Positions 18,986 through 59,716 of a stretch of DNA of 64,000 nt are shown one piece after another; position 1 is the stretch's first letter; each line of letters starts with the position of its first letter. The notes below the pieces were generated by a model. It was not told the origin of the DNA. It did not search any database and saw nothing but the letters and a program-made list of their open reading frames with translations. The position numbers were made by a program, and so were the translations under genes. Origin of the DNA: an archaeon (GTDB lineage Archaea > EX4484-52 > WAPT01); assembly GCA_029258795.1 (NCBI GenBank), contig JAPDKB010000008.1, positions 1-64,000 of the forward strand, written 5' to 3'.

Positions 18986-19110
18986 GCCCCGGTAGTGTAG
19001 TCCGGCTGATCATACGGGACTGTCACTCCCGTGACCCGGGTTCAAAAGATGCTGCTCGATGCCGTCCTGCAGGATCGGGCATGCTGCTGGATTTCCCGGC
19101 CGGGGCGCCA
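18986..19110 (+). tRNA. tRNA-Asp(GTC) with intron in the T-loop, CCA encoded
   Basis: GCCCCGG/CCGGGGC acceptor, CGGGA-CTGTCAC-TCCCG anticodon arm, CCGGG-TTCAAA[~45 nt]T-CCCGG. Confidence 0.88.
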
Positions 19111-19153
19111 AGTTCTTCTTTTTGTTAAAGAGATTAGTAACAAAATCCTTTGC

Positions 19154-20218
19154 CTAGAAATTCAAGAGTCGCTCTTTGTTTTTAACCAAAGATATCAATA
19201 GCAAAAGCAGTTCCCGATCAATAAGAACGTGTTTATAATATCCTTTTCTCTCTCGCATCTCTACGATGTCTCTCCAAACGCTAGGGGCTACATTATTTGT
19301 GGCTGTAATCATTAGAAGTTCTCCTTCTTTCGCATGTCTAACTCCTTCTGAGTAATCCATTTCGCTAAATCTGCTCTTGAAATATGCTTTTGCCTCTCCA
19401 TACTTTTCAGGTTTTATGCTGCTCAAATAACTATAGAGATTTATGATATGAAAATCCGGCATACCTGGCCCGCCAATTCTAACCACTTTAGAGTTGAGAA
19501 GTGTGTTACCGTATTGGGTGTGCAGTGTAGTCAAGAACTTTGGTAATGTTTCTCTCAACTCTTTGAGCAGATTCACGACAAATTTTTCGAAGTTGTAAGG
19601 CCTTTCCTTCTCATTCCAAGCACTTACTACTTCATCGAACCAAATTTCACTAGACTTTTCTGGAGAAGTTGGAATATCTCTCGCGATACTCTGAATGAGT
19701 TCCTCGACCTCCTCGGAGTCTTGTCTGAGAAATTCAAGAAGGTAGTATGCTTTTTGCTTCCATGGTGCTAACTTACGAAGACTCCTTCTGTGATCCAAAT
19801 ATACAAAAATACAGTTCTTCCCCTTGTTTTCGGAGAGGATGTACGTAAAGTTCGAGATCTCTGGAAAAATCACGTAAATAGATTTTTGAGCATAGTGTAG
19901 TTTCAAAACCATTCTATGCTTATCCAATTCTACAGGTGCGATAGTGCTTATCTTACGCTTAACTTCCTGAAGTATCGTTATATAACGGACATTCTCGATA
20001 ATCCTCTTAATCCTTATATGTTTCTCGGATGGGCGTATCTGCCTTCCACACCTACAAATTGGTAGTTGAGTCGAGCAATCATCGAACTCTATTTCTTCAT
20101 CACAATTCTGACATTTCAACACTTTTTTTTCTTCTATTTCAATAAAATCTTTTAGGTCTTCTGGTAAGCTCTGTGTTAAAAGCGAATATCCTCTAACCAA
20201 AGGAATCCTGTCTGTCAT
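19154..20218 (-). CDS. Putative PD-(D/E)XK nuclease with N-terminal zinc ribbon
   Basis: CQNC...CRCG zinc ribbon; FEKFVVNLLKEL ... GMPDF ... GEAKAYFKSR resembles D-x(n)-ExK nuclease core. Confidence 0.5.
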   Translation of the reverse strand: MTDRIPLVRGYSLLTQSLPEDLKDFIEIEEKKVLKCQNCDEEIEFDDCSTQLPICRCGRQIRPSEKHIRIKRIIENVRYITILQEVKRKISTIAPVELDKHRMVLKLHYAQKSIYVIFPEISNFTYILSENKGKNCIFVYLDHRRSLRKLAPWKQKAYYLLEFLRQDSEEVEELIQSIARDIPTSPEKSSEIWFDEVVSAWNEKERPYNFEKFVVNLLKELRETLPKFLTTLHTQYGNTLLNSKVVRIGGPGMPDFHIINLYSYLSSIKPEKYGEAKAYFKSRFSEMDYSEGVRHAKEGELLMITATNNVAPSVWRDIVEMRERKGYYKHVLIDRELLLLLISLVKNKERLLNF

Positions 20219-21390
20219 TTTGTCAACACCTTATTTAGATATGCTAAGATGTTCTCTCGATCCTCTAAGGAAAGACCCCGATAGTCAAAACTTATGCTTG
20301 TGTCTTCTCCTTCCCTGAAGAATTTTATTGTAAATTTTCTCCCCTGAAACTTTATTCGAACATATTCACAGTCGCTTTCATCGAGAACTAACTCGTACGT
20401 TTCTCTCAAATCAGTTAACGCATTTTCTACTCCTAATTCCTCGTCTTGTGCTTTGATAATTACCTTTGGGGAATCGGTGAGTGGAAAGTTTGCAAAACAT
20501 GCTTCCAAAAGTTTTACATTTTTATCTTCGCCTTTCATCCATTTTGATATTAGCTTGTTTATTTTTTCTCTTGGAAACTTTCTTTCTTCTTCACTTAGTT
20601 TTACATCATTGTTAGTAAGATCCTTTATGAGGTTTTCCGCAAATTTTTTTATCGTCTTTTTTTCTTTTTTTGTATAGATCTCCACCCTTGAGAAATCTTT
20701 TTGTATCTTAAAAACCTTCGAATCTGCCAGTCGTACAAAATCATTCCTATCTACTAGTTTTATTGGGGCGCTTTTGAGTCTAGATCTTCGAAAAATAATT
20801 ATCCATTCGTTTTCAGTTTCTTTAAACCACCAAACCTTGGATTTCTGCCTTTTTTTCTTCCTTTTTCTTTCGTACGTATTTAGAAGATTTTCTACGGTTT
20901 CTTCATCTACATGTATATCTTCTACCTCAGGACGAGGATCGACAATGTACTTGGTAAATTTGCACTTTCTTATAAAAGACTCATAAAGTAAATCAACAAG
21001 CGCATCACTATGTTTGAGGTATAATAAAATAATCAACATGTCTGCATCATTCCCGTAGATTTTCATCTCGTCATCTTCGAGGAATTTGGCAGCGTGTTCA
21101 CGTATCAAAGCCATGTGGCCAATCTTACTAGCAAACCAAGAGCAGCAATACATAGAAAACATTAACTCTTTGTCTTTATTGTACATCTCCCGGAATTTTT
21201 CAAACCTTTTACGTTTTTTAGTTTTGTCTAGACCTAAAAATCCTAACCATTTCTCATTTCTTGTCCTTAATCTATTGAAAATCTTTTTACAAAAACTTTT
21301 TTCGTCTGTTTTCATTTCATCGAGAAAGTCTTCTACTGGAATTTCTAGTTTTTTCCAAAATTCCACAGTCTTCTCTCCAATATCGTTCAT
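20215..21390 (-). CDS. Hypothetical protein, unknown family (defence-operon candidate)
   Basis: 391-aa ORF overlapping the next gene by 4 nt (ATGA). Confidence 0.6.
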   Translation of the reverse strand: MNDIGEKTVEFWKKLEIPVEDFLDEMKTDEKSFCKKIFNRLRTRNEKWLGFLGLDKTKKRKRFEKFREMYNKDKELMFSMYCCSWFASKIGHMALIREHAAKFLEDDEMKIYGNDADMLIILLYLKHSDALVDLLYESFIRKCKFTKYIVDPRPEVEDIHVDEETVENLLNTYERKRKKKRQKSKVWWFKETENEWIIIFRRSRLKSAPIKLVDRNDFVRLADSKVFKIQKDFSRVEIYTKKEKKTIKKFAENLIKDLTNNDVKLSEEERKFPREKINKLISKWMKGEDKNVKLLEACFANFPLTDSPKVIIKAQDEELGVENALTDLRETYELVLDESDCEYVRIKFQGRKFTIKFFREGEDTSISFDYRGLSLEDRENILAYLNKVLTK

Positions 21391-21392
21391 AA

Positions 21393-21998
21393 TTAATCAC
21401 CATTAATCATGTTCATTAAAGCGACTTGCTCTACAGCACTTAGCTCAAATGAAACCAAATTTGCGATTTCTGAAACAATTTTCTCGTCTAAATTAAATTT
21501 TTTCACAAGTTTTTTCCATTCTTTATCCTCTAGATTTTCTAGTGCGTTAAAAAAACAAAAAATAATCTCATCAAATCCTTTTCTTTTTCCTCCTAGGTCA
21601 ATAAGTGTTTCGAAATACTCTTTCAAAAAATACTTAATAAGATCTGGAGGTATAACTTTCTTCAAATCGTTTATACTCATCGAAGTTAATCTTGTTTTGC
21701 CTGAAAAAAGAAATGGCTCTCTAATATGGATAATTTCATTTACTGTCGTGTAGAACACGTTGAGTAACGAACTCCAATTTACTTCGTATTTCTTAGATTT
21801 ATCTCGGCGGACAGGTTTTATCAGACCTGCTTTTTCTAACTCTTTAAGCTGTTCTGTGACCGTAGGTTGTTTCTTTTTTAGAACCTTCGCTATGGAAGTT
21901 GCGTAGTTTTTGCCGCTTATAATACTTAACAAAACCTCGAGATATGCTGGTCTTTCCAATATATCAAGTACGTTGTCAAGATTAGTCTGTTTTGCCAT
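21393..21998 (-). CDS. Winged-helix (ArsR/MarR-like) transcriptional regulator
   Basis: ATSIAKVLKKKQPTVTEQLKELEKAGLIKPVRRDKSKKYEVN helix-turn-helix/wing. Confidence 0.7.
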   Translation of the reverse strand: MAKQTNLDNVLDILERPAYLEVLLSIISGKNYATSIAKVLKKKQPTVTEQLKELEKAGLIKPVRRDKSKKYEVNWSSLLNVFYTTVNEIIHIREPFLFSGKTRLTSMSINDLKKVIPPDLIKYFLKEYFETLIDLGGKRKGFDEIIFCFFNALENLEDKEWKKLVKKFNLDEKIVSEIANLVSFELSAVEQVALMNMINGD

Positions 21999-22089
21999 GA
22001 TTATAAAAACTACACAAAAATATTTAAATGTTATTGGTATCGACTATACCATAAAAAATGGGTGTTTGGAGGGTGTTAATAGAGTACTA

Positions 22090-22878
22090 CTATAATACGC
22101 TCGCCCCTCCCCCCAAAAACTCCTGCAAATCTCTGAATTCATCGATTAAATCTGCGGCAAGGTATGCTGAACCGCCGTTCTTCTCCTTCACTCTGTAGAT
22201 GGAGATCACCCCACATGGCAGTTGCTGCTCTTCCTTCCTTAAGTCAAGCGCTATGAAGCACACCACATCTTTCGTGCTGTAAAGTGAGCTCATCCATTTC
22301 GCAATTTCCCTTATCGTTGAGCCCGAATTGACCACATCGTCCACTATGGCTATGCGGTCCACATCAACCGCGGTCTCAACCGCTCTGTATTCATCCAGAA
22401 CCTTTCTGTAAATCTGACCCTCATAGGGCTTGCCACTGATATTGTCTATAAAGCCGATTGTTTTGCCATCTTTCACCACCCTCTTTATCGGACAGTAAAG
22501 GATTTCTAGCATGCTTTTTCCGTTTGTGGACAGTGAAAGCCGTATCCTCTCCATCAATTCCTTGCCTCCACTTCCCACTGAAATTACGGCATCATAGCTC
22601 AGAAGCTCGCTGTACCACGTTTCAACACAATCCCTTTCCATCTCTTTAAGCTTGGCGTTTTCCCACTTGCGCTGCGATAGAAAAGAAGGTACGCGCTTGC
22701 CCTGCTTCTCCTTCCATCTTGCGTACTTCTCCACGCTCCTCCCATCAAGCTCGCTCAGAGCATCAAGCAGCGCTTCCATTTCATCCTTTTCCTCCCCGAG
22801 GTAGAAAATGGCAGTGTAGTTATCGACTATGAACCCTCTTGCCGGTAGCGTACCTTCTCGATTCAGATATGCTGACAT
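22090..22878 (-). CDS. Phosphoribosyltransferase-domain protein
   Basis: RIAIVDDVVNSGSTIREIAK PRPP-binding motif. Confidence 0.7.
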   Translation of the reverse strand: MSAYLNREGTLPARGFIVDNYTAIFYLGEEKDEMEALLDALSELDGRSVEKYARWKEKQGKRVPSFLSQRKWENAKLKEMERDCVETWYSELLSYDAVISVGSGGKELMERIRLSLSTNGKSMLEILYCPIKRVVKDGKTIGFIDNISGKPYEGQIYRKVLDEYRAVETAVDVDRIAIVDDVVNSGSTIREIAKWMSSLYSTKDVVCFIALDLRKEEQQLPCGVISIYRVKEKNGGSAYLAADLIDEFRDLQEFLGGGASVL

Positions 22879-23095
22879 TTCCCGCTAATTCCTTAAGATT
22901 TCTCGTACTCCATTCATACCACCTCCGGTGTTTTTTTAGAAGGGAGATGATGAGAACATAGCTGAAGCTAAGAAAAAGCACATTTCCTTTCATGGCGCGA
23001 GATGTTGGTACAGCATCACCACACCTATGTTAAAATCACACCATCAAAGTTTTTAAGCTTAACCATTTCAGAAAAAGCGTTCCTTTGATGGAAAA

Positions 23096-23473
23096 TTATT
23101 TCAAATAGCGGGTGTTTTCAAGCAATATTTCGGCAAAGTTTCTTATATTCCCTATGGACGGGTTGGTTTCCATGTATTTCTCTATTATTGGATGAAAATC
23201 CATCTCTACAATCGCATGTCTGGGTCTTTCGTACATTTCCTGCAGCGTGCACGTGAATACTGTTGCACTTGAACTCATCTTTCCTTTATTTGAAGCCACG
23301 CTAACACTACTCTGGTCCACCTTGAGAGACACAAGCAATTCATTACACGCGTCATCCGTGAACACGAAAAAATAGTAAGGATATCCACCATACCCTGCCG
23401 CTATTTCCTTAAAACCAAGGTCCGAAATGAGCTTGTCTATGGAAGATAGAGAAAGTGACCATACGGTTGACAC
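23096..23473 (-). CDS. Hypothetical protein
   Basis: ORF only. Confidence 0.5.
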   Translation of the reverse strand: MSTVWSLSLSSIDKLISDLGFKEIAAGYGGYPYYFFVFTDDACNELLVSLKVDQSSVSVASNKGKMSSSATVFTCTLQEMYERPRHAIVEMDFHPIIEKYMETNPSIGNIRNFAEILLENTRYLK

Positions 23474-23535
23474 CCTCTCTCTGAAATTGATTTTGGTTAG
23501 TGACTCGTTGAAAAGTAAAAATTTTTAATTATTAG

Positions 23536-24189
23536 CTATCGGCCGCCCTTTTCCGTCAGGAGCTTGATTATGGCCAGCGCAAACTCTTCAGCTGCCTTTG
23601 GGTCACTTGCTGTCACTATTTTACCATCCACCTCAACATCTCTGCCCGTATAAATTACTCCGGCTTTCTCAAGCTCGTCCCTTGCCCCTTTCCATACTGT
23701 AGCATGTTTTCCTTCCAGAATTCCAGCTCTGGCAAGGATGACTGGCCCGAGACATATCGCTCCTACAACCTTTCCTTCTCCGTAAGCTGATCTCGCAATT
23801 TCAAGGGCGCGCTCATTCTCGAAATAGATGGTAGCTCCTGCCCCTCCCACAAAAACAACCGCATCGAAATCAGAAACGTTGATCTCGTAGATGGTGTAAT
23901 TAACCATTATCGTTGAGCCGAGCATACCCTTGGCAATGCCTTTCCGTAAAGAAGCAACCATGACTTTGGCGCCACGACTTTCAAGCACGTTTTTGGTCAC
24001 GAAGAGCTCCTCATCCCTGAAGTTTTCAGGAGCTATTATCATGAGCAGGGACTTGTTGGCCAGCTCATCACTTACCTTCTGGTCCTGAGTTACAATCTCT
24101 CTTGTATTGTTCTGCTTTCCCACACACCCCGAAAAGAAAACGACAAGCACGGTCAAAATTAGGAACAGGACTGTGGCGTGTTTCTTCAT
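23536..24189 (-). CDS. DJ-1/PfpI family protein with lipoprotein signal peptide
   Basis: N-terminal hydrophobic stretch plus lipobox-like FFSGCVG; VFVGGAGA, GAICLGPVILARAGIL DJ-1/PfpI nucleophile region. Confidence 0.75.
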   Translation of the reverse strand: MKKHATVLFLILTVLVVFFSGCVGKQNNTREIVTQDQKVSDELANKSLLMIIAPENFRDEELFVTKNVLESRGAKVMVASLRKGIAKGMLGSTIMVNYTIYEINVSDFDAVVFVGGAGATIYFENERALEIARSAYGEGKVVGAICLGPVILARAGILEGKHATVWKGARDELEKAGVIYTGRDVEVDGKIVTASDPKAAEEFALAIIKLLTEKGGR

Positions 24190-24281
24190 GCTAAATGATG
24201 TGGCGCTAAAATTATTTAAACCTCCATGCAGCTAACCTGAAGTTATCAAAAAGCTCTGCATGGAGGTGAGGAAAATGGCGG

Positions 24282-24569
24282 GTGAGTATTTTGGACTCCA
24301 GCGGAGAGGTGGTGTACGGTCCAACCGGTGTTGATGCGGAGTTCTTGTGGAAGCAGCTAAGCCGTTACAGGATAAAAGATGCTGGTTCTGTGCCAAATTA
24401 CGAATGGGTTATAACCCGGTTAAAGGTGCGCCTGAAAGAAAACGGATGTGAAAGGCTGTACGAATGTCCGGAGGATGTGCTTCCTCTTTCTTACAAAGCG
24501 GAAGTGGACGTTCTGATTCCGCTGCTGAAGAGTAAGAAAATAGTTGGATATGATGTTGTGAAGAAGTAA
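24282..24569 (+). CDS. Hypothetical small protein
   Basis: ORF with GTG start. Confidence 0.45.
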   Translation: MSILDSSGEVVYGPTGVDAEFLWKQLSRYRIKDAGSVPNYEWVITRLKVRLKENGCERLYECPEDVLPLSYKAEVDVLIPLLKSKKIVGYDVVKK

Positions 24570-24620
24570 CCCGCTCTTTCTTTATTCTTTTTTAAAAAGA
24601 AAATACTGAGAAATAAGGAG

Positions 24621-24738
<118 letters not shown>

Positions 24739-24770
24739 GGAAGAATATATGCGGGTAAGATTTTTAAGGT

Positions 24771-25061
24771 TTATCCCGTCCCTCGAAGCCCCAGCTTTTT
24801 CTCGATATCTTCTGGTTTGGCGTTTTTTAGCAGTACATCCTTCTCCCTGTTTTTCTCCCCTCTCACGATTTCAGCTTTAACGCCCAGCAGTTTGGAAAGG
24901 AAGCGCACAAGCTCTTTGTTTGCCCTGCCTTCAGCAGGTGGAGCTTTGACCCTAATTTTTAAGCGGTTGCGCGCGGCATCCACTTCAGCTATTTCGTTCT
25001 TCTTGGCGTTTGGTACCACTAAAAGTTTGAGAACTATACCTTCAGGATGTTTTCTAATCAC
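24771..25061 (-). CDS. DUF167 (YggU-like) family protein
   Basis: LKIRVKAPPAEGRANKELVRFLSKLLGV motif. Confidence 0.85.
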   Translation of the reverse strand: MIRKHPEGIVLKLLVVPNAKKNEIAEVDAARNRLKIRVKAPPAEGRANKELVRFLSKLLGVKAEIVRGEKNREKDVLLKNAKPEDIEKKLGLRGTG

Positions 25062-25072
25062 TTACATCCCCA

Positions 25073-26239
25073 TTAGCAAATTGTCTTCCTTGCTTTATCC
25101 ATACACTTTTCAAGATATACCACAATCTCGTTAAGTGAGGGTTTTAACCTTTCCGTTAAAAAAGTGCGAATGTCCCTTTGCAGATACATATTAATTTCTT
25201 CTTTCGGGATTAGATCATCCATGTATTTCTCATATAGCTTCAAACCAGTTAAATACATGAGAATGTTGTAGATCCTCGTGATGTGCGAGTCTGCGATGGA
25301 TTTAGTTTTCCACGACTGATCCATACCTATCGTTCCTCGATACAATATGGTATTTCCATCCTCTATCTCGATATATCGGGGATTGGACAACACTTTAATC
25401 TCTGGGTTAAACCGTAGATGTTTCAATTCTTTTAATTGCTGACATAATTCATTCCTATATGAGTTCTCCATCAAAGAGAGTATCGACTCTCCTTGTTTGT
25501 CCTCATTTCCAATCACAAGTAATGTGAAATAATTGTTGTATATTTCAAAACCGCCCTTGACAGGTAGAGGGCTACTAGGGCAGTGATCATTGTATATAGC
25601 AGAAACTACGGTAAGTTCCGAATCCCTAATCATAGAGTCGATCAAATCCTCGCCGGTGTTTGTACCATCTCTTATTACGAAATATCGAGCTGTAAATGGT
25701 ATGTCCGTTATCCCTAAATCTCTTTTAAAGCTGAGTTCATCTATCCGAAGGTCGTCCCACACCCTCAGTTCGATTTCAGGCGAGTATCTTTCAGCATCAA
25801 GTCCATTGGCTTTTGTAAATTCAAAAAATAAAGATGATGGTTTAGACCATACTTGTACGGGATGTTCCTTTACCTCGACCACTCTATGTAAGAGTTCGTG
25901 AATGCAAATCGCGGGAACAGGGATATCTGGGTTTAAGATATATTCTTTTCCGATTTCAATTTTGATACCTTCGTCAGTGTTGTTTGATACGGCCCTTGGA
26001 CGTGAATGCCTGTATGTCATCCGTGGATGAGTGTCCCAATCCACTATTTCAACTATAACTGATCCATGGTTTTTGAGTCTTTCAAATAGTTCTGAGGATG
26101 TTTCTTTTAATAGTTCAAAAGCTATTTCGAAATTAGATTCAATTTCTTTCTTCAGATCTTCAAATATAGCCTGAGGAAGAAATTTGTTAGTAATGAGTAG
26201 CTGTGGTTTTTCCTCATTCATAACATTAACCACCTTCAC
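25073..26239 (-). CDS. Hypothetical protein with zincin-like HELLH motif
   Basis: PAICIHELLHRVVEV motif in AT-rich ORF. Confidence 0.5.
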   Translation of the reverse strand: MKVVNVMNEEKPQLLITNKFLPQAIFEDLKKEIESNFEIAFELLKETSSELFERLKNHGSVIVEIVDWDTHPRMTYRHSRPRAVSNNTDEGIKIEIGKEYILNPDIPVPAICIHELLHRVVEVKEHPVQVWSKPSSLFFEFTKANGLDAERYSPEIELRVWDDLRIDELSFKRDLGITDIPFTARYFVIRDGTNTGEDLIDSMIRDSELTVVSAIYNDHCPSSPLPVKGGFEIYNNYFTLLVIGNEDKQGESILSLMENSYRNELCQQLKELKHLRFNPEIKVLSNPRYIEIEDGNTILYRGTIGMDQSWKTKSIADSHITRIYNILMYLTGLKLYEKYMDDLIPKEEINMYLQRDIRTFLTERLKPSLNEIVVYLEKCMDKARKTIC

Positions 26240-26315
26240 TTAGTCTTCACTTTATAGATATGGAATTTTCGATTAAAATTTAAAAATTTATAATTATGTA
26301 CTTACTATTTGGTAA

Positions 26316-26789
26316 TTAATTAATTCTCTTTATCACTCTCACCATCCACTCCTCAAATCCCATCTTCCTCCAGAATGCACGCGCACCTTCGTTTCTGTGA
26401 TCGAAAGAAAGGGTTATGTACTCGACTCCTTTCTCCCTGAACCAATCGAGCAGAAAGTTGAACATCTTTTCACCTATGCCCTTCTTTCTATGATCGGCAC
26501 CAACGCATGCGTCGCTTATCCTGCCCATCTTTTTGATTTTCAGGAATGGTCTTGCACTCTCCACCACTCCGATCATGTAGCCGATAATGTTGCCATCCTC
26601 CTCGGCCACCACAACCAGAGCATCGTCCTTGCTGGAAAGCAGGTTCTCAACGTGCTTTCTAAAGCCCTCTTCAACCTTAGCTCCCTTTTTGTAAATTTCA
26701 TCCATCTCCGCATGCATGTCCGCAAGCTGTTTGTTTATCCTCGCTATTTCATCAACATCCTCAAGCCGGGCTTTCCTAACCGTCACCAT
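26316..26789 (-). CDS. GNAT-family N-acetyltransferase
   Basis: ISDACVGADHRKKGIGEKMFNFLLDWFRE, LSFDHRNEGARAFWRKMGF. Confidence 0.85.
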   Translation of the reverse strand: MVTVRKARLEDVDEIARINKQLADMHAEMDEIYKKGAKVEEGFRKHVENLLSSKDDALVVVAEEDGNIIGYMIGVVESARPFLKIKKMGRISDACVGADHRKKGIGEKMFNFLLDWFREKGVEYITLSFDHRNEGARAFWRKMGFEEWMVRVIKRIN

Positions 26790-26842
26790 GGTTTTTCATC
26801 TGTGGGGGAGTTTTATAAGGGTTTCAAGTTCTCCTTGGCTGA

Positions 26843-28533: not shown

Positions 28534-28593
28534 GAAAGTGGTTTTGTGTGGATATCGGTTATAAAAGTTTCGTAATGTTAACGGACTTGCACT

Positions 28594-29811: not shown

Positions 29812-29870
29812 AAAGTAGTGCTTTTATGCGTTATAAAATTTTTATATGCACTTTTTCCATATAGAACTCC

Positions 29871-33991: not shown

Positions 33992-34001
33992 AACTTGCTT
34001 T

Positions 34002-46239: not shown

Positions 46240-46364
46240 GGGGCCGTGGTGTAGCTTGGTTATCATTCCGGCTTTGGGAGCCGGCGACCCCGGTTCAAAT
46301 GCCATGGAGCAAGCTCCTTGCATTTCTAGCTGCTCCGCGGCTGAAAATCCGGGCGGCCCCACCA
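46240..46364 (+). tRNA. tRNA-Pro(TGG) copy 1 with T-loop intron, CCA encoded
   Basis: GGGGCCG/CGGCCCC acceptor; CCGGC-TTTGGGA-GCCGG anticodon arm; CCCGG-TTCAAAT[intron]...AAT-CCGGG. Confidence 0.88.
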
Positions 46365-46580
46365 GAGCCGGAGAGAATTGAATCTACTTTTAGAATCCTA
46401 TGTGTCCCGAGAAATCTATTTTTGTTTTGGGTTCTCTGTACTGGACAATTTAGTGTATTGCCCAATTATTTAAAAGTGTTTTGTGGAGTGCCATCATCAT
46501 TAACAACTTCCGTAAATTATATAAGTATTGCTGATTTAGGAGATGTTCATCAAAAAATATCTGCGTCTTTTTCTTGGGCG

Positions 46581-50584: not shown

Positions 50585-50617
50585 ATTTGAACTTTAGCTT
50601 GGAAGAAATTAATAGGT

Positions 50618-51863: not shown

Positions 51864-52095
51864 AAACGTAACAAATTCAATTTGTATATGGTTTAGTGTG
51901 ATTGTAGTCCATTCGTCTATTTTTGAGAATGAATATTAGGAGGTAAATTGATAACCCATACCTAGATACGGTGGTTCTCTGAAGAGGGACTCTAATAGTT
52001 AAGATGAGTCGCTGATACAACTAAATCTTTTTAAAAATTCTACCTGACAGAAAAATTCTTACACTCAAAGGCATGGGTTAGCCTTGGGTTGTGAA

Positions 52096-52214
52096 GGGGC
52101 CGTGGTGTAGCTTGGTCATCATTCCGGCTTTGGGAGCCGGCGACCCCGGTTCAAATGCTGCAGCCCACAAACTAATCCTACAAGTTGCGGCTGAAAATCC
52201 GGGCGGCCCCACCA
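52096..52214 (+). tRNA. tRNA-Pro(TGG) copy 2 with T-loop intron, CCA encoded
   Basis: Mature portion nearly identical to copy 1 but different intron. Confidence 0.88.
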
Positions 52215-52431
52215 GAGCCGGAGAGAATTGAATCTATTTCTTTGATGATCTGGTGTCCCGAGAAAACAAAACTCACACTCCTACTTGTCCTTTGGGATGA
52301 GTTTAAAGTATTCTCAAAATATTTTGAAACTTGTTTAAACATTTGTAGGGGTTCTTTGACCAAAAACTATATAACCATTAAAAACAAAGACACTGTTAGC
52401 CCGAAACGAATGAGCTCAAAAGAGCAAACTT

Positions 52432-52616
52432 GGGACAGGCATGCGTTTTCTTTAGAGCGTAGTATGGTGCATGTGTTCGCTCCTCCCTTCACTTCTCCCC
52501 TCGAGGGAGGAGCGAGTTGATTGGCGAGAGGGCAATGAGAAAAGCTGCTGGATAGCCATACGTGCTTGAGGTGTCTATGGCGGGAAAAGAGGTTGTGGTT
52601 AAGGAGGTGAGGTGAG
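52432..52616 (+). promoter_or_regulatory. Structured 5' leader (family B)
   Basis: GGGACAGG...GCTCCTCCCTTC...GGGAGGAGCG hairpin; TATA-like CTATATAAC at ~52369. Confidence 0.45.
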
Positions 52617-52970
52617 ATGGGAGTAAAGGAAGTGGTTGATGATACAGATACCTCGAAGGAAGTGCTCAGAAAGGTTATTCTGGAGGAACTAGCAGATATA
52701 AAAAGAAGACTGGACAAACTAGATAAACTAGATGATATTGAGAGGAGAATCGATGATATTGAAGAGAGACTGAATAAGATAGAGAAAAGTGTAAGAAGAC
52801 TTAATTGGCGTGTGGGGGAGTTAGAAGAGGAAGTCGATTCCTTAAGACGTCGCTTAAGTGGGCGCCCCATTATCTTTGATGATGACAAGGTTCCGGTGAT
52901 CGAACCAACGCCTGCATTGGGCGGCATAATGAGCTGCGAGTGGGACAGATCCGGACAGAGCCTTGATTGA
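52617..52970 (+). CDS. Coiled-coil small protein
   Basis: Heptad-rich ORF; preceded by AAGGAGGTGAGGTG. Confidence 0.55.
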   Translation: MGVKEVVDDTDTSKEVLRKVILEELADIKRRLDKLDKLDDIERRIDDIEERLNKIEKSVRRLNWRVGELEEEVDSLRRRLSGRPIIFDDDKVPVIEPTPALGGIMSCEWDRSGQSLD

Positions 52971-53152
52971 TTAACTTCGAACTAAAGCATATCCTAAAAT
53001 TTACGCGAATGCAACATTCTCTTAATTTTTTTCGAAATGACGTGACTGCGGAATTTTCCCTGACTAGAAAAGTATATAAGTGTTAAGGATTAAAGATGAC
53101 TCTGTTCAAAAAAACGAGTTCTTTATATTTGGTGTTGAAGCTTGGACGTGTT

Positions 53153-53247
53153 GGACATGTTGGTGTTTTTTCTACTCGAACATATGATCTCCTGTGTCCC
53201 GCTCCTCCAGTCAGGGAGGAGGGAACAGGAGGTGAGGAGGTGGGGTT
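53153..53247 (+). promoter_or_regulatory. Structured 5' leader (family C)
   Basis: GGACA...TCCTGTGTCCCGCTCCTCC-AGTCAG-GGAGGAGGGAACAGGA nested hairpin; TATA-like AGTATATAAG at ~53071. Confidence 0.5.
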
Positions 53248-53610
53248 ATGAAGGATTTGGAATGGTTGATTGAAGTGACACAGCGAGAGCGTGAAAGGCA
53301 GTAGAAGTTACAGAATATGGAATTTATGAAGGTATTCAAGGAGATTGAGGAACTCGAGAGACAAAAGGAAGAGTATCGTAGTAAGGTTGAGGAAGTTGAG
53401 AAGCAGATACAAGAATTGGGGTCACGATTGAGATGTGCAGATGTGGATGAGAAATTTAGTTATTCGGTTGAGATTCGTAAAGATGTGGTAGTGTTCAGAG
53501 TGAGACGCCGAAGAGATATGAGTGTTGAGGGTCAGGTAGAGATTCCACATGATATGTTGCAAGGGTTTGTGGATTGGTTGAGACGGAAAGGTGTGATAGA
53601 TGTGAGGTGA
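53248..53610 (+). CDS. Coiled-coil small protein interrupted by an in-frame TAG (codon at 53302)
   Basis: Strong SD before ATG 53248; same frame continues after TAG as ORF 53317-53610. Confidence 0.45.
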
Positions 53611-53707
53611 TGAAATGCAGTATGAGGTGATCGGTGAGTGGGAGGCAGTGACCTTTCAGAGACAAAGGACCGAATAACAGAGATTCTGAAAAAGAGAGGC
53701 GTTGGGT

Positions 53708-53997
53708 ATGGTGACGAGGGCGGGTAACAGTAGTATGTTGGGACGTGAGGGTGAAATCGATGTCCTTGAGACAGATGATCTGATGCAAAAGAAAGCTCTA
53801 GTATGCTGGCTAGAGAAAATGATGCTAATCGCACTTTGGCACTCCAACGATCTTACAACAAGCGTTCTCAAAAAATAGAAGAGATGGAGATAATAAAAGA
53901 GAAAGGCAAGACAACGTCCAAAGAGATTCTAGAGATCATAGATCAAATAGAACAATTACTAGAGGTATTAAAACAAAAGGTTTCTAGTTCTTCTTAA
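53708..53997 (+). pseudogene. Frameshifted paralog of the 46671-47072 protein
   Basis: MLGREGEIDVLETDDLMQKKALVCWLE aligns to LLGSEGEIDTLEINLIRKIACRHWLQ; the remaining homologous tail lies in another frame. Confidence 0.5.
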
Positions 53998-54226
53998 TTT
54001 TTTTGTATTTTGTAAGTTGGGTTTTATTTTTCGATTTATGGGAAAATTATCCAATTAAGTGGATTGTATCGTGTGTTGTGAGAAGGTTAGTCGAAATGAG
54101 AGATGAGTGTTGTCACGTTGGTGTGCTCAACGTAACAACAATAATCTATATAAAGATTTTTTCGCTCACAATATATCAACATATCACACGTGAGCTCCGC
54201 CCAGAAAAAGATGAAGGTGAGTGAAC

Positions 54227-54385
54227 TTGGTCATATACGTTAAGGTGATATGCCCGAAATGCGGCGGCACCTTTGAATGGAAATGGGGTCGTCAAAAAGG
54301 CGTGTGCGATATATGTGAGGCGGAGCTCACGATAAGGGATGTCAAGCTTGCCAAAGGCGAGATTTTGAAGCTATTGCAAGGTTGA
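54227..54385 (+). CDS. Small zinc-ribbon protein
   Basis: VKVICPKCGGTFEWKWGRQKGVCDICEAELTIRD; TTG start; TATA-like CTATATAAAG at ~54150. Confidence 0.5.
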   Translation: MVIYVKVICPKCGGTFEWKWGRQKGVCDICEAELTIRDVKLAKGEILKLLQG

Positions 54386-54473
54386 TGAGATTTCTTGCAA
54401 AAACTGAAATTGGTTGTTGAAGTCATTGAAATTAATGTGTTTCGTGGATATTGGAAGCAAGCCAACACATTCT

Positions 54474-54680
54474 TCAAAAATCGTATCTTGGATCTCTCCC
54501 CCATCCACGGTACATTATACCTTCTATGTATACTCTAGGCGGAACGCTGCCTTCGAGGGGACCTTTAAGTAATTCTGCTCTTGAAAAAGCTGCATCTAAA
54601 GCCGCTTCCTCAGTAATGGGTCCACATATATTTTTCGCCCTTTCAAATACGTAGCTTTCCCTTCCAAACATTTTCAACAC
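54474..54680 (-). CDS. Hypothetical small protein
   Basis: ORF only. Confidence 0.4.
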   Translation of the reverse strand: MLKMFGRESYVFERAKNICGPITEEAALDAAFSRAELLKGPLEGSVPPRVYIEGIMYRGWGRDPRYDF

Positions 54681-54692
54681 CCCCGTTGAAAT

Positions 54693-55061
54693 TTAGCTTA
54701 TGTGAGATATCTCCAAACTCTTGCAAGTTTGGGCAAGATCCTGCTCAAGGTTTATAATGTTCTTGTAGACGATCTCTTCCAAAAACGCTCTCACCTGTTT
54801 GGCAATTTCAGGAATATGCTTTTCATAAAGTTTTTTATTTTTCTTAAGATCATTCTCGACATTAACTACCTGCCTGTAAAGATTTTCAAGACCCCATAGT
54901 TCCTCGATTTTATTGTGATTTGCTGCTCCCGCTTTTGCTATGTTAAGTGCTTCCTTAACCTCATTAACGGCACCCAGCACACCTTGGTAAGTGAGCCGGG
55001 GATTTTCAAGAGATTTGATCGCACCATACACCTTTTTTTCAGCAAGTCTATATTCAAACAT
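54693..55061 (-). CDS. Hypothetical helical protein
   Basis: ORF, divergent from tbp. Confidence 0.5.
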   Translation of the reverse strand: MFEYRLAEKKVYGAIKSLENPRLTYQGVLGAVNEVKEALNIAKAGAANHNKIEELWGLENLYRQVVNVENDLKKNKKLYEKHIPEIAKQVRAFLEEIVYKNIINLEQDLAQTCKSLEISHIS

Positions 55062-55206
55062 CCCACAACCACCCCCAAAATTTTCTTGCTCTTTATTATG
55101 GTATTAAAAGTATTTAAATGTTTCGTTACTTTTAAGTGGTTACAATTTAAAAAGGTTAAACATTTAAAGATGTCCTCAAAATTTAAAAAGGCAAGGGGTG
55201 TGTGGT

Positions 55207-55785
55207 ATGGCCAAAAGCAAGAAGGACGAGAACTTCGTTGACAAGGAGGATGAGATAAAGATAGAGAATGTTGTGGTTTCTGCTGACTTGAAAACACGTT
55301 TACCTCTTGAAAAGATAGCGATGGAACTGGAAGGAGCTGAATATGAACCCGAGAGCTTTCCCGGTCTGGTTTACAGAATAAAGGAGCCAAAAGCTTCCCT
55401 GCTGATTTTCACCACCGGTAAGATAATATGCGCGGGCACACGCTCTCAGGAAATCGCAATGCAGGCCATAAAAAAGGTCATTCAGGACCTCAGAAAGATC
55501 GGAATTGAGGTAAAGGGCGAGCCAGAACTGAAAGTGGAGAACCTTGTAGCTTCCGCTAATCTCAAGGCGAGATTCGATCTGAACCGCATAGTTTACGAGC
55601 TTGAGGATTGTGAGTACGAGCCGGAGCAGTTCCCGGGCTTGGTGCACAGGATGGAGGACCCACCTGTTGTGTTCCTCATCTTCAACTCGGGAAGGCTCGT
55701 GTGTACTGGCGCTAGGTCAAAAGAGGAAGTGAAGAGAGCCATAAACAACCTCAAGAAAGAGCTTGAGGCGATAGGTGCGTTCTAA
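55207..55785 (+). CDS. tbp: TATA-box binding protein
   Basis: Two imperfect repeats (YEPESFPGLVYRI / YEPEQFPGLVHRM). Confidence 0.97.
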   Translation: MAKSKKDENFVDKEDEIKIENVVVSADLKTRLPLEKIAMELEGAEYEPESFPGLVYRIKEPKASLLIFTTGKIICAGTRSQEIAMQAIKKVIQDLRKIGIEVKGEPELKVENLVASANLKARFDLNRIVYELEDCEYEPEQFPGLVHRMEDPPVVFLIFNSGRLVCTGARSKEEVKRAINNLKKELEAIGAF

Positions 55786-55821
55786 ATTCTTCCCACTCAA
55801 AATATTTTTGGGTGAGATTTC

Positions 55822-56421
55822 ATGAAGTTGCTGTGTGCTTCAGATTACCATGCAAACCACCGCTTTCTTGAGAGCACTGTGGAGCACGCTGAAAAGCTGG
55901 AGCCGGATGTGTTCGTTTACTGTGGGGATTTCGTAATGCAGGAGTATGCGGAGGAACTCATAAAAAGGTTGGAGGAAGTTGGCGTGCCGGTGCTTGCGGT
56001 TGCCGGCAATCTTGATCTCGGTATCATCTATGAAAGCGAGATGTCGGAAATAGTGATGTACGGTTTGAGAGAGCTTAAGGGCTATCACTTTTTACTTGTG
56101 AGCGCCACCTATCCCTTCATTCTGGATGAAGCTCTTGCCGATGTTGAGGGTATAGACCCTTCCAAGCTGATATTCGTGACACATTACCCGCCAAAAGGTG
56201 TGCTTGACAAAATATGGAGCAACGAGCATGTTGGCTATGATGGTTATGCTGAATTTGATGAGAATGTCAAGCCAGCGCTCCACGTTTTCGGTCACATTCA
56301 TGAGGACAACGGGTTTGAGATTAAGAGCAACACGATTTTTGTTAATTGCGCTGCCACACCATCCAGAAAGATCTACTTGGTTGATCTGAAAAAAAGAGAG
56401 GTAAGGGATGTTAAGCTATGA
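55822..56421 (+). CDS. Calcineurin-like metallophosphoesterase
   Basis: ASDYHAN, YCGDFVM, VAGNLDL, HVFGHIHED. Confidence 0.85.
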   Translation: MKLLCASDYHANHRFLESTVEHAEKLEPDVFVYCGDFVMQEYAEELIKRLEEVGVPVLAVAGNLDLGIIYESEMSEIVMYGLRELKGYHFLLVSATYPFILDEALADVEGIDPSKLIFVTHYPPKGVLDKIWSNEHVGYDGYAEFDENVKPALHVFGHIHEDNGFEIKSNTIFVNCAATPSRKIYLVDLKKREVRDVKL

Positions 56422-57353
56422 AGCAAAAGCTGAATGTGCCGCGGCTCTTCAGGGAGCGCTACAGGAGGATTCTTGGGGATGAGGTAAAGGTTCTTGTTGA
56501 TTACTGCTTCAAACCGCTCAGGAAAAGCATAAGGATCAACACGCTAAAGATTGATGTGGATGAATGTGTGAAAATGCTTGAATCCAAAGGGTGGGAACTG
56601 AAGCAGGTGCCATGGTGTAGCAACGGCTTCTGGGTGGAGAACAGAAATGAGGAGCAGCTTGGAAACACGCTGGAGCACTTTATGGGCTACTATTACGTGC
56701 AGGAAGCATCATCCATGATCCCTCCTATTGTGCTGCAGCCAGAGGAAAAGGATTTCGTGCTTGACATAGCTGCCGCGCCAGGCTCTAAGACCACGCAGAT
56801 GGCTGAAATGATGAAGAACAAGGGGTGTATAGTGGCAAACGACATCCAGATTCAGCGGATAAAGGTGTTGAGGTTCAATCTGGAGAAGCTCGGAGTCATA
56901 AACACCGTTGTGACGAGAATGGATGGAAGGAAGTTCATAAAGTTTAAGGAGAGGTTTGATAAAGTTCTGGTGGATGCCCCTTGCTCATCCGAGGGTATCA
57001 TGAGGAAGGACTGGAAAGCGTTTTCCAGATGGAACATCAAATTCATAAAGGAGATGGCAAAGCTGCAGAAAAAGCTGGTGGATGCTGCTGCGGTCACGCT
57101 TAAGAGAGGGGGTGTAATGGTTTACTCCACATGCACCATGTCTCCGGAGGAGAATGAGGCGGTGGTGGATTATGCTGTAAAGAAGCACGGGCTGGTGGTG
57201 GAGAAGGTAAAGGTTAAGGGGCTTAAAGCCAGGCACGGCATAACTGAATGGGAAAGCCAGCAATTCGATGAAAGTGTGAGGAACTGCTTGCGCATCTGGC
57301 CTCAGGATAATGACAGCGAGGGATTTTTCGTTGCAAAGTTGAGGAAGGAGTGA
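56418..57353 (+). CDS. NOL1/NOP2/Sun-family RNA m5C methyltransferase
   Basis: VLDIAAAPGSKTTQ, VLVDAPCSSEGIMRKD, VYSTCTMSPEENE. Confidence 0.93.
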   Translation: MKQKLNVPRLFRERYRRILGDEVKVLVDYCFKPLRKSIRINTLKIDVDECVKMLESKGWELKQVPWCSNGFWVENRNEEQLGNTLEHFMGYYYVQEASSMIPPIVLQPEEKDFVLDIAAAPGSKTTQMAEMMKNKGCIVANDIQIQRIKVLRFNLEKLGVINTVVTRMDGRKFIKFKERFDKVLVDAPCSSEGIMRKDWKAFSRWNIKFIKEMAKLQKKLVDAAAVTLKRGGVMVYSTCTMSPEENEAVVDYAVKKHGLVVEKVKVKGLKARHGITEWESQQFDESVRNCLRIWPQDNDSEGFFVAKLRKE

Positions 57354-57826
57354 GGGAAATGAGCAAGCTGAAAATTATGAGTGAAGAGGAAAAGAGGGAG
57401 ATGCTGGACTATCTGGAGGAGAGGTTCGGGATAGATAGGGGTGTATTTAACGGTTACATTTTCATTAAGAGCGGGAGGAAGGTGTGGATAACAAACAGGG
57501 ATGTTGTGGAGAAGAACTTCTCCGGGATGAATGTGGAAGCTGCGGGCATGCTTTTTGTTAGATGGGAAAAAATTAAGGACAAGATCAAGATCACCACGAA
57601 TGCTGCGCAGATTTTTGGAAAGTACGCAACAAAGAACGTTGTGGAAGTGGATGAAATTCAGCTCCACCAAGTTCTATGCGGACTCAACCTGTATGATGTG
57701 GATGTTGATTGTGAAGACGGATACGTGCTTTTAAAGTATGGGGAACACATTCTTGGGGTGGGGTTGAAGCACGGGAACTTCATCAAAAACCTGATTCCAA
57801 AAGCAAGGAGAGTTAAAAAGCTTTAA
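57350..57826 (+). CDS. PUA-like domain protein paired with the NSUN methyltransferase
   Basis: Overlapping start; YVLLKYGEHILGVGLKHGNFIKNLIPKARRV C terminus. Confidence 0.65.
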   Translation: MREMSKLKIMSEEEKREMLDYLEERFGIDRGVFNGYIFIKSGRKVWITNRDVVEKNFSGMNVEAAGMLFVRWEKIKDKIKITTNAAQIFGKYATKNVVEVDEIQLHQVLCGLNLYDVDVDCEDGYVLLKYGEHILGVGLKHGNFIKNLIPKARRVKKL

Positions 57827-57930
57827 AACTTTGGCTTTAAAAGGGTGAATTGAAAGCAAAAAAATTCGCTTCATGGATTTTTCAGTTAGGACGCATGTTG
57901 TGTTTGAGCAGATAGCTCCATGTTCTTCCA

Positions 57931-58035
57931 AATCCCGGCTCCGGGGACAGTGCTTTCTCTCATCCTTCCTCTCCAGACGGAATTCTTATCCGTCGCATCC
58001 CCCATGAGAAAAGCGTCCATACCGGAGCCCGGATT
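57931..58035. ncRNA. Candidate structured RNA of unassigned family; strand uncertain
   Basis: Nested stems: AATCCCGGCTCCGG/CCGGAGCCCGGATT, GGAC/GTCC, GCTTT-C-TCTCAT/ATGAGAAAAGC, GACGGA/TCCGTC. Confidence 0.45.
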
Positions 58036-58039
58036 CCAT

Positions 58040-58110
58040 GCGGCCGTGGTGTAGTGGGATCACGCCCCGTATCCAGCGGGGAAACGCCGGTTCGATTCCG
58101 GCCGGCCGCA
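58040..58110 (+). tRNA. tRNA-Gly(TCC), atypical A33
   Basis: GCGGCCG/CGGCCGC acceptor, CCCCG-TATCCAG-CGGGG anticodon arm, GCCGG-TTCGATT-CCGGC T arm. Confidence 0.85.
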
Positions 58111-58140
58111 AATTCATGAAGATGTGTGGAGGTGGAGAAG

Positions 58141-58305
58141 ATGGCACCTCCTGAGAAATGTGATGAGTGCGGTTCCACCAACCTCAAGAAAGTTGTGATC
58201 GCCAAAATACCAACAGGGCCAATGGTCATTGGAGGGAGCACACCGTTAATGGAGTTAGCAGTATATCAATGTCGAGAGTGTAAAAACATAATGGGTCCCA
58301 AGTAA
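58141..58305 (+). CDS. Small zinc-ribbon protein
   Basis: MAPPEKCDECGSTNLKKVVI...YQCRECKNIMGPK; two CxxC pairs. Confidence 0.5.
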   Translation: MAPPEKCDECGSTNLKKVVIAKIPTGPMVIGGSTPLMELAVYQCRECKNIMGPK

Positions 58306-58338
58306 AAGCAAGCTTTCAGACCATTTTATTTTTTCTTT

Positions 58339-58359
58339 TTATTTTTGGGAAATTTGTCC
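58339..58359 (+). terminator. T-rich tract with GGGAAATTTGTCC motif
   Basis: TTATTTTTGGGAAATTTGTCC after zinc-ribbon ORF. Confidence 0.4.
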
Positions 58360-58470
58360 TGATTTTGGTTTTGGATGAATGTGGAAGGGGCTCAGTTCAG
58401 CAAAAGGTTTATAAATTTTCGAGATATGTGTGACTAAAGAGTAACAAAAGTTGTCGATGCTGTAAATAAT

Positions 58471-58624
58471 GGATCCCGTGAAAAAGCGGGATACCTAATT
58501 CTGGTTTAAGTAGTGGACAGCGTGAAGATGGCTGTCTCTATCTGTCCCGCATGCCCCTGTTCAGGTTTTCTTTCCCGGGTGCAATTCCCGGCAAGGGTCG
58601 GAAGATATTAAAAGGAGGTGAAGA
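58471..58624 (+). promoter_or_regulatory. Structured 5' leader (family D) with T-arm-like hairpin
   Basis: ATCCCG/CGGGAT, GACAGC/GCTGTC hairpins, GGACAG...CTGTCC, CCGGGTGCAATTCCCGG; TATA-like TTTATAAAT at ~58408. Confidence 0.5.
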
Positions 58625-58927
58625 ATGATGGTGTCGTACTGCGCAGCATCGGAAATGCTGAAGGGCACTTCCGAACTATGCGAGGTGTATCTGTTCGTTA
58701 TACTCTATCTATCTGGATTATTGGCCGCATACGTCATCATAAAGCTGGAGAGAGAGCCAGAGATTCTGGAAAAGCTGACGAACAAACTGAATAGGAAGAT
58801 AAGCTGGACTGGAAAGACGCTAGATAACATGGATGTTTGGGAAATAATAGTCACGAGCATCATTCTGATTTCGCCAGTGCTATTTGTTATTCCATTCCTG
58901 CTAGGGTTCTGCCCGCGCTACTGCTAG
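58625..58927 (+). CDS. Small membrane protein
   Basis: SD AAAGGAGGTGAAG; two hydrophobic segments. Confidence 0.55.
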   Translation: MMVSYCAASEMLKGTSELCEVYLFVILYLSGLLAAYVIIKLEREPEILEKLTNKLNRKISWTGKTLDNMDVWEIIVTSIILISPVLFVIPFLLGFCPRYC

Positions 58928-58967
58928 CATAAATGTCCGCTAAGCTTTTCCCCAAATTTTTTGTCAT

Positions 58968-59095
58968 GCCCCCGTAAGGTAGCCAGGCATCCTTCCTTCC
59001 GGCGGATGGTTCGTTTTTCTGGAAAAGGAGGAGGTGCTATCCCGCCGCCACCTCATTGCCGGAAGGAAACCCGGGTTCAAATCCCGGCGGGGGCA
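58968..59095 (+). tRNA. tRNA or tRNA-like gene with a large insertion in the anticodon arm; anticodon unresolved
   Basis: GCCCCCG/CGGGGGC acceptor, AGGTAGCCAGGCATCCT D arm, CCTTCCGGC/GCCGGAAGG extended stem, CCGGG-TTCAAAT-CCCGG T arm. Confidence 0.55.
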
Positions 59096-59139
59096 CTTTT
59101 CGAAATTTTTGGTGAAAACAAAACCTTCCTATTTTTTGT

Positions 59140-59185
59140 GCGGCCGAAAAAGCACTGTGTCCGGGTGCAATTCCCGGCGGCCGCT
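59140..59185 (+). other. tRNA acceptor/T-arm minihelix-like element
   Basis: GCGGCCG [14 nt] CCGGG-TGCAATT-CCCGG CGGCCGC T, i.e. 7-bp acceptor plus 5-bp T-arm with 7-nt loop and no D/anticodon arms. Confidence 0.55.
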
Positions 59186-59217
59186 GGAAAACTGTGAAAA
59201 AAGGAGGAGGTGAGAAT

Positions 59218-59488
59218 TTTGAGGGAGAAAAAACCGGGGTCTGATTGGATATTGATATGGGTTGAAAAGGATATTAAGAAAGAAGGTATGTTGAAGAAAA
59301 TAATAGAGTATGCTAGGGAAAATGAGTTGATTGAGCAGGATAGAAAGTGGCTTCACCCTACAGAAATAGAGGAAGTAGTAGGAAAGGTGCTAAAACACAT
59401 AATGAAAGAAAAAGATCCTAACGCACCCCTGACACCAGAGAGGGCTGAAGAGCTCTATAACAAACACTATGTCACCCACGAACACTAA
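59218..59488 (+). CDS. Hypothetical small protein
   Basis: SD AAGGAGGAGGTGAG, TTG start. Confidence 0.55.
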
Positions 59489-59594
59489 TCGTCACCCATT
59501 AATTTTTATTTTTTGAAATTTATGGGAAGAAATTCCCGTTTAATTGAGATTAAAAAATTTAAATGCGAGAAATAAAAAGCTGTGTGTTGTTGGT

Positions 59595-59716
59595 GGGCCG
59601 GTGGTCTAGCCTGGAAGGACGCTGGCTTCGCACGCCAGAGACCCCGGGTTCAAATGCTGCGGAGCAAGCATGAATATGCTGGAACTCCGCAGCTGAGAAT
59701 CCCGGCCGGTCCACCA
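59595..59716 (+). tRNA. tRNA-Ala(CGC) with T-loop intron, CCA encoded
   Basis: GGGCCGG/CCGGTCC acceptor with G3-U70, CTGGC-TTCGCAC-GCCAG, TTCAAAT[intron]AAT-CCCGG. Confidence 0.88.

What the first reader, a model, noticed from the sequence alone, without database searches (positions are those of the whole stretch)
18986..59716. Four tRNA genes carry introns in the T-loop
tRNA-Asp(GTC) 18986, tRNA-Pro(TGG) 46240 and 52096, and tRNA-Ala(CGC) 59595 all read normally through the anticodon arm and 5' T-stem to TTCAAA, then are interrupted by ~40-45 nt before the 3' T-stem. Three junctions look alike (TTCAAAT-GCTGC...GC(G/A)GCTGA(G/A)AAT), suggesting a spreading intron type. T-loop (about 59/60) introns are well known from Thermoproteales, but a set of them in a genome with euryarchaeal-type gene content would be notable. 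Basis: sequence for the interruption; taxonomic contrast from general knowledge; spread is inference.
Basis: partly seen in the sequence, partly recalled or inferred. Interest (0 to 1): 0.75.

Follow-up and report, generated by a model that had tools for sequence, protein, structure and literature searches.

The report
Mobile introns crowding archaeal tRNA genes
This tiny archaeon has a short removable insert at one and the same spot in about two thirds of its tRNA genes; close relatives mostly lack the inserts and near-identical copies sit in unrelated tRNAs, so the inserts have recently spread, which makes the unsolved question of how such introns move testable.

Summary
All four tRNA genes are interrupted exactly between T-loop positions 59 and 60, with the sequence hallmarks of a strict bulge-helix-bulge (BHB). 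They belong to a set of 30 such introns among 45 recognised tRNA genes of this genome, a 1.17 Mb DPANN archaeon rather than a euryarchaeon. All recognised genes for Asp, Cys, Glu, His, Leu, Pro, Ser and Trp are intron-bearing, so they are very unlikely to be pseudogenes. Two same-genus genomes hold orthologous genes without the intron. In 27 presence/absence comparisons the 17 nt of T-arm exon are unchanged in 21, without target duplication; flanks are syntenic at several loci. Introns 78-97% alike sit in different isoacceptors (Ala-CGC/Val-GAC 97%), while introns at shared sites are barely alignable: recent copying is the best reading. The intron's 3' end carries YGRR, which pairs with the near-universal T-loop TTCR, so any T-loop can supply the exon half of a BHB. 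Position 59/60 introns, large-scale intron transposition (Thermoproteales) and heavy intron load (Asgard) are published; the lineage, single-site concentration and empty-site pairs are new here. A second small genome (G103) shows a parallel expansion. The copying mechanism remains unknown.

The parts
18986..19110 (+). tRNA-Asp(GTC) gene; exon 1 18986-19046, intron 19047-19093 (47 nt), exon 2 19094-19110 with encoded CCA
19047..19093 (+). T-loop 59/60 intron of tRNA-Asp; TTCA pairs with TGGA; bulges AA|A and TT|T; inner helix adjoining the bulge is weak
46240..46364 (+). tRNA-Pro(TGG) copy 1; exon 1 46240-46299, exon 2 46348-46364
46300..46347 (+). T-loop 59/60 intron of tRNA-Pro copy 1, family A; TTCA pairs with TGAA; bulges AA|T and AA|T
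52096..52214 (+). tRNA-Pro(TGG) copy 2; exon 1 52096-52155, exon 2 52198-52214; one exon difference from copy 1 and about 50 nt of alike 3' flank, but a different intron interior
52156..52197 (+). T-loop 59/60 intron of tRNA-Pro copy 2 (42 nt); TTCA pairs with TGAA; inner helix GCTGC/GCGGC
59595..59716 (+). tRNA-Ala(CGC) gene; exon 1 59595-59654, exon 2 59700-59716
59655..59699 (+). T-loop 59/60 intron of tRNA-Ala(CGC), family A, 97% identical to the intron of tRNA-Val(GAC) at G000:C5:60111-60180(-); absent from the orthologs in G001 and G002
18523..18658 (-). tRNA-Lys(CTT) with a canonical 37/38 intron (62 nt) and no T-loop intron; comparison

Best explanation
These are protein-spliced archaeal BHB tRNA introns, all at 59/60, that have recently multiplied by copying from tRNA gene to tRNA gene. 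Shown here: precise insertion between 59 and 60; conserved BHB complementarity; near-identical copies in unrelated isoacceptors; intronless orthologs, several syntenic, in sister genomes. Inferred: the exon contributes T54-R57 (TTCR, near-universal in tRNAs) and the intron contributes YGRR+AA at its 3' end plus its own inner helix, so an intron landing at 59/60 of almost any tRNA at once forms a BHB. EndA then cuts in the two 3-nt bulges and RtcB rejoins the exons. That portability explains the single-site concentration. The copying step is not established. Precise insertion with unchanged flanking exon nucleotides argues against ordinary gene conversion for most copies; one pair (Leu-CAA/Leu-CAG) does look like conversion or duplication of a whole tRNA 3' half.
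For: 30 introns in G000 at one position. Central-helix complementarity of 4/4 in 83% and 3/4 in 17% of 47 introns, against 2% and 18% in slid windows; helix 2 paired in 98% of cells. Family A: Ala-CGC/Val-GAC 97% identical, Leu-CAG/Val-GAC 88%, Cys/Gly-CCC 86%, Glu-TTC/Gly-TCC 81%; family B: Thr-GGT/Ala-GGC 78%. Empty sites in both G001 and G002 for Ala-CGC, Cys, Gly-CCC, Gly-TCC, Pro-GGG, Gln-TTG, Arg-TCG, Ser-TGA, Thr-GGT, Val-GAC, Trp and elongator Met; 21 of 27 comparisons have identical T-arm exons; flank similarity on both sides for Gln-TTG, Thr-GGT and Ala-GGC and on one side for Ala-CGC, Cys and Gly-CCC. Between the closely related G001 and G002 (98% RpoB) Ala-GGC and Glu-CTC also differ by presence or absence. 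EndA and RtcB genes are present.
Against: No RNA data, so splicing is inferred. Unconstrained folding forms the central helix in only a few introns, although canonical 37/38 introns of the same genomes, including Trp, fail in the same way. The only EndA found aligns Ala or Ser with the catalytic Lys of M. jannaschii EndA, so its activity needs testing. Some introns (Ser-CGA, Ser-GGA, His) have weak inner helices. Loss in the G001/G002 ancestor could explain some sites.
Confidence: 0.88

Rival explanations
1. Gene conversion or duplication: intron-bearing tRNA genes or tRNA 3' halves overwrote others by homologous recombination, with no intron-specific mobility.
For: Leu-CAA and Leu-CAG share an identical stretch from the variable arm through the intron to CCA. 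The two Pro-TGG genes are near-identical duplicates with alike 3' flank.
Against: For most copies the recipient keeps its own T-arm. Val-GAC keeps TTCGAT and CCAGG while carrying an intron 97% identical to the one in Ala-CGC, whose context is TTCAAA and CCGGG; 21 of 27 comparisons show no T-arm exon change at all.
Confidence: 0.2
2. Ancient introns lost repeatedly: the genus ancestor had many 59/60 introns, kept in G000 and lost in G001/G002.
For: About nine sites are occupied in both lineages (Ile-TAT, Leu-TAA, Leu-CAG, Pro-TGG, Arg-GCG, Ser-CGA, Ser-GCT, Ser-GGA, His). Precise loss is possible in principle.
Against: Introns at shared sites are hardly alignable between G000 and the pair, and flanks are about 70% identical, whereas Ala-CGC and Val-GAC introns are 97% identical within G000 and absent from both relatives. 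Other genomes of the phylum show 0-3 hits, though the model may under-count them.
Confidence: 0.1
3. Decayed or pseudo tRNAs carrying insertions, with functional copies elsewhere.
For: Standard tRNA finders score them below threshold.
Against: Exons are intact and almost unchanged relative to intronless orthologs, CCA is encoded in most, and whole amino-acid sets (Asp, Cys, Glu, His, Leu, Pro, Ser, Trp) have only intron-bearing genes.
Confidence: 0.02
4. A sub-hypothesis of the best explanation, on the copying step: spread at the RNA level, in which an excised intron is ligated into another tRNA at 59/60 and the product is copied back into the genome through cDNA.
For: Explains nucleotide-precise insertion without exon change or target duplication. 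In four isoacceptors the intron-bearing gene has an encoded CCA where the intronless ortholog lacks it (Gln-TTG, Thr-GGT, Pro-CGG, Glu-CTC).
Against: No RVT_1 reverse transcriptase found in any of the three genomes. Val-GAC shows the opposite CCA pattern, and 4 against 1 is not significant.
Confidence: 0.2

Closest known systems
Transposed tRNA introns of Thermoproteales (Sugahara 2008; Fujishima 2010, as described in PMC4033280 and PMC4090602)
   Same: Similar introns in diverse isoacceptors; BHB junctions; high intron load; mechanism stated as unknown.
   Different: There introns occupy canonical and non-canonical positions in a crenarchaeal order; [quoted passage not shown] Here one position dominates, in a DPANN genome with one EndA gene, and empty-site orthologs exist within the genus.
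Non-canonical 59/60 BHB introns of archaeal tRNAs (PMC4090602)
   Same: Same insertion point and the same splice motif.
   Different: Reported as one of several non-canonical sites; here 30 genes in one genome carry it.
Intron-rich tRNA genes of Atabeyarchaeia and Freyarchaeia (PMC11291895)
   Same: 92-95% of tRNA genes carry introns, often at non-canonical positions.
   Different: Those are Asgard archaea, over half of the tRNA genes have multiple introns, and the passages read do not describe an intron family or empty sites.
ARMAN-2 / Micrarchaeum tRNA introns with epsilon-2 EndA (PMC6379350)
   Same: Ultrasmall archaeon with non-canonical introns; a specificity-loop Lys, which has an aligned counterpart here in the A. 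pernix comparison.
   Different: The EndA here is a single-unit, M. jannaschii-like protein of 197 aa, not a three-unit fusion.

Membership tests
Archaeal BHB tRNA introns | Intron excision restores a canonical cloverleaf | tested here: met
Archaeal BHB tRNA introns | 3-nt bulge / 4-bp helix / 3-nt bulge at the junctions with splice sites in the bulges | tested here: met
   By complementarity: 4/4 in 83% and 3/4 in 17% of 47 introns; not reproduced by unconstrained folding, nor are most canonical 37/38 controls
Archaeal BHB tRNA introns | Splicing endonuclease and RtcB ligase encoded | tested here: met
   EndA at C6:35580, RtcB at C3:134423
Archaeal BHB tRNA introns | Precursors are spliced in vivo | not testable with these tools
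   No RNA data; indirect support from absence of intronless isoacceptor copies
Transposed tRNA introns (Thermoproteales type) | Highly similar introns in non-orthologous tRNAs | tested here: met
   97% Ala-CGC/Val-GAC, z = 13.7
Transposed tRNA introns (Thermoproteales type) | Presence or absence at orthologous loci in close relatives | tested here: met
Alpha-4 type EndA (single catalytic subunit) | One gene, with N-terminal and catalytic domains | tested here: met
   Single PF01974 hit at E <= 1; near full-length match to 1A79; oligomeric state not tested
Alpha-4 type EndA (single catalytic subunit) | Tyr-His-Lys catalytic triad | tested here: not met
   Tyr and His present; the Lys position aligns to Ala or Ser across the phylum
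Group I or group II self-splicing introns | Catalytic RNA core | tested here: not met
   Introns are 24-52 nt in G000, far too short; no Rfam intron hit in the window

The most novel reading that the evidence does not exclude
The T-loop 59/60 intron is a minimal selfish element without coding capacity, targeted by the near-universal TTCR of tRNAs; it is inserted by a precise splicing-linked route and maintained by an EndA whose catalytic Lys has been lost or moved into the phylum-specific NPYK loop between the catalytic Tyr and His.
Probability: 0.2. Interest if true: 0.85.

Novelty: new member of a known kind. Interest (0 to 1): 0.6.

Why it matters
How archaeal tRNA introns move is a stated open question (PMC4090602). 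Here is a genus in which dozens of insertions are recent enough that donor-like copies, syntenic empty sites and unaltered target exons are all visible, which constrains the mechanism (nucleotide-precise, no target duplication, little co-conversion) and gives natural substrates for testing it. It extends intron proliferation to a DPANN lineage with a single EndA gene, and shows that standard tRNA finders miss or truncate many tRNAs in such genomes.

Tried and rejected
(1) RNA folding as proof of the BHB: ViennaRNA leaves the central helix open in most introns, but does the same for most canonical 37/38 introns, so it does not discriminate. (2) Reverse transcriptase as agent: no RVT_1 in three genomes. 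(3) Viral carriage of the family A intron: no exact pattern match in viral contigs. (4) 'G000 is unique': model R1 gives 29-31 hits in G000 and at most 9 elsewhere, but R1 was trained on G000 and under-counts others; G103 had 4 R1 hits, yet a free scan of a few kb found 11 T-loop introns among 14 tRNA calls. Uniqueness is not claimed. (5) A relation between encoded CCA and intron gain: 4 against 1, not significant.
Full report
The observation. All four tRNA genes are present at the stated coordinates. Each reads normally from the acceptor stem to G53-T54-T55-C56-A57-A58-A59, is interrupted by 47, 48, 42 or 45 nt, and resumes at T60-C61 with a perfect T-stem and acceptor partner and an encoded CCA. 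ARAGORN missed two and truncated two; Rfam's tRNA model scored all four below cut-off.

Genome-wide scale. The window is contig 3 of a 1.17 Mb, 96% complete assembly. A pattern search, a purpose-built scanner and a covariance model of the T-arm plus intron (R1) converge on 30 tRNA genes with an intron at 59/60: Ala CGC and GGC; Cys; Asp; Glu TTC and CTC; Gly TCC and CCC; His; Ile TAT; Leu TAA, CAG, CAA, TAG and GAG; elongator Met; Pro TGG (two), CGG and GGG; Gln TTG; Arg GCG and TCG; Ser CGA, GGA, GCT and TGA; Thr GGT; Val GAC; Trp. About 15 further tRNA genes lack a T-loop intron; of these some have 37/38 introns (Lys, Tyr, Thr-TGT) or D-loop introns (Arg-TCT, Arg-CCT, Val-CAC). Every recognised gene for Asp, Cys, Glu, His, Leu, Pro, Ser and Trp is interrupted, so these cannot all be pseudogenes (inference; the assembly is not closed).

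Splice motif. With exon 1 ending at A59 and exon 2 starting at T60, exon T54-R57 (TTCA or TTCG) pairs with intron nucleotides -6 to -3 (TGAA, TGAG, TGGA, CGAA and similar). Over 47 introns from three genomes this is 4/4 in 83% and 3/4 in 17%; windows slid along the introns give 2% and 18%. Bulges are typically AA|T and AA|T. Pair counts on alignment A1 give 98% paired cells for this helix and 100% for the T-stem. Energy folding usually leaves the 4-bp helix open, but it does so for most canonical 37/38 introns of the same genomes too, so it neither supports nor refutes.

Taxonomy. RpoB places the genome with two 'DPANN group archaeon' genomes (91% and 90%), then with genomes labelled 'Nanohalarchaeota' (about 60-64%) and 'Aenigmatarchaeota'. 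GTDB phylum EX4484-52 is a guess from memory.

Empty sites. In G001 and G002, orthologs of 12 G000 intron-bearing tRNAs lack the intron in both, and a few more lack it in one. The 17 exon nucleotides 49-65 are identical with and without intron in 21 of 27 comparisons, and there is no target duplication. Flanking DNA matches on both sides for Gln-TTG (exons identical), Thr-GGT and Ala-GGC, and on one side for Ala-CGC, Cys and Gly-CCC. G001 and G002 are 98% identical in RpoB yet differ from each other at Ala-GGC and Glu-CTC.

Spread. Introns fall into families that ignore tRNA identity: family A (TGCYGCGGA...CGCRGCTGAAAA) in Ala-CGC, Val-GAC, Leu-CAG/CAA, Glu-TTC, Gly-TCC, Gly-CCC, Cys, Pro-TGG and Pro-CGG of G000, in Glu-CTC of G002, Ala-GGC of G001 and Leu-CAG of both; family B in Thr-GGT and Ala-GGC. 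Ala-CGC and Val-GAC introns are 97% identical although both orthologs are empty in G001/G002 and although introns at sites shared by G000 and G001/G002 are barely alignable. Copying after the split is the simplest account. The Val copy sits in TTCGAT/CCAGG and the Ala copy in TTCAAA/CCGGG, so no flanking exon was transferred. Leu-CAA and Leu-CAG share an identical 3' half including the intron, which looks like conversion or duplication, a second mode.

Machinery. EndA is a single gene of 197 aa, similar over nearly its whole length to the M. jannaschii enzyme 1A79 (E = 5e-31) and also to A. pernix and ARMAN-2 EndA. It has a short insertion whose Lys51 aligns with the A. pernix specificity-loop Lys44; such loops confer broad specificity (PMC6379350). 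The insertion is present across the phylum, so it is permissive at most, not the cause of the expansion. Unexpectedly, the catalytic Lys position is Ala or Ser in the phylum's EndA sequences. RtcB is present; no RVT_1 reverse transcriptase was found.

Breadth. R1 under-counts remote lineages: in G103, a 0.6 Mb genome of another family, a free scan of about 10 kb found 11 T-loop introns among 14 tRNA calls, with 46-50 nt copies in Thr, Met and Phe (84-92% identical) and 76-79 nt copies in Pro, Lys and Val (86-94%). Independent expansions at the same site support the view of the T-loop as a portable landing site.

Comparison with the literature. 59/60 is on the published list of non-canonical sites, and intron transposition in Thermoproteales was inferred from similar introns in diverse tRNAs, mechanism unknown (PMC4090602, PMC4033280). 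Very high intron load at non-canonical sites is published for Asgard genomes (PMC11291895). Searches of the held library found nothing on this lineage's tRNA introns; subscription journals are largely missing, so absence is weak evidence. I file it as a new member of a known kind, with an unusual single-site concentration and unusually clear empty sites.

Noticed in passing
L009:1216-1809 (G000:C6) and loci L269-L294: The only EndA found in this phylum has Ala or Ser where M. jannaschii, A. pernix, N. equitans and M. kandleri EndA have the catalytic Lys (motif NIRAK versus SVRKK), and carries a conserved NPYKxGxK insertion between the catalytic Tyr and His. Its activity or a relocated Lys needs testing.
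   Followed up: partly
G103: L299, L313, L314, L315: An independent small archaeal genome with T-loop introns in 11 of 14 tRNA calls seen, including 76-79 nt introns 86-94% identical in Pro-TGG, Lys-TTT and Val-CAC.
   Followed up: partly
G000 L084, L085, L091, L100: D-loop introns in Arg-TCT, Arg-CCT, Val-CAC and Arg-TCG; Arg-TCT and Arg-CCT introns are 81% alike, and Arg-TCT (G002) and Val-CAC (G001, G002) orthologs are intronless, so D-loop introns appear mobile too.
   Followed up: partly
G000 C3:113.1k (L124) and C5:31.3k (L129): tRNA-Leu(CAA) and tRNA-Leu(CAG) share an identical stretch from variable arm through T-loop intron to CCA, suggesting conversion or duplication of a tRNA 3' half.
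   Followed up: partly
window 58039-58111: A second tRNA-Gly(TCC)-like gene without T-loop intron, with A instead of T at position 33 and no encoded CCA; it may be a pseudo or specialised tRNA.
   Followed up: no
G000 contig 11 (L262, L001, L002, L006): A short contig with intronless Thr, Gly, Tyr and Thr tRNAs in bacterial order; probably contamination of the bin, not checked further.
   Followed up: no
window 46240-46450 and 52096-52310: The two tRNA-Pro(TGG) genes are near-identical in exons and in the first 50 nt of 3' flank, yet their introns differ in length and interior, showing rapid intron turnover after duplication.
   Followed up: partly
Gln-TTG, Thr-GGT, Pro-CGG, Glu-CTC: The intron-bearing gene has an encoded CCA where the intronless ortholog has none; Val-GAC shows the reverse. 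Hint only, not significant.
   Followed up: partly
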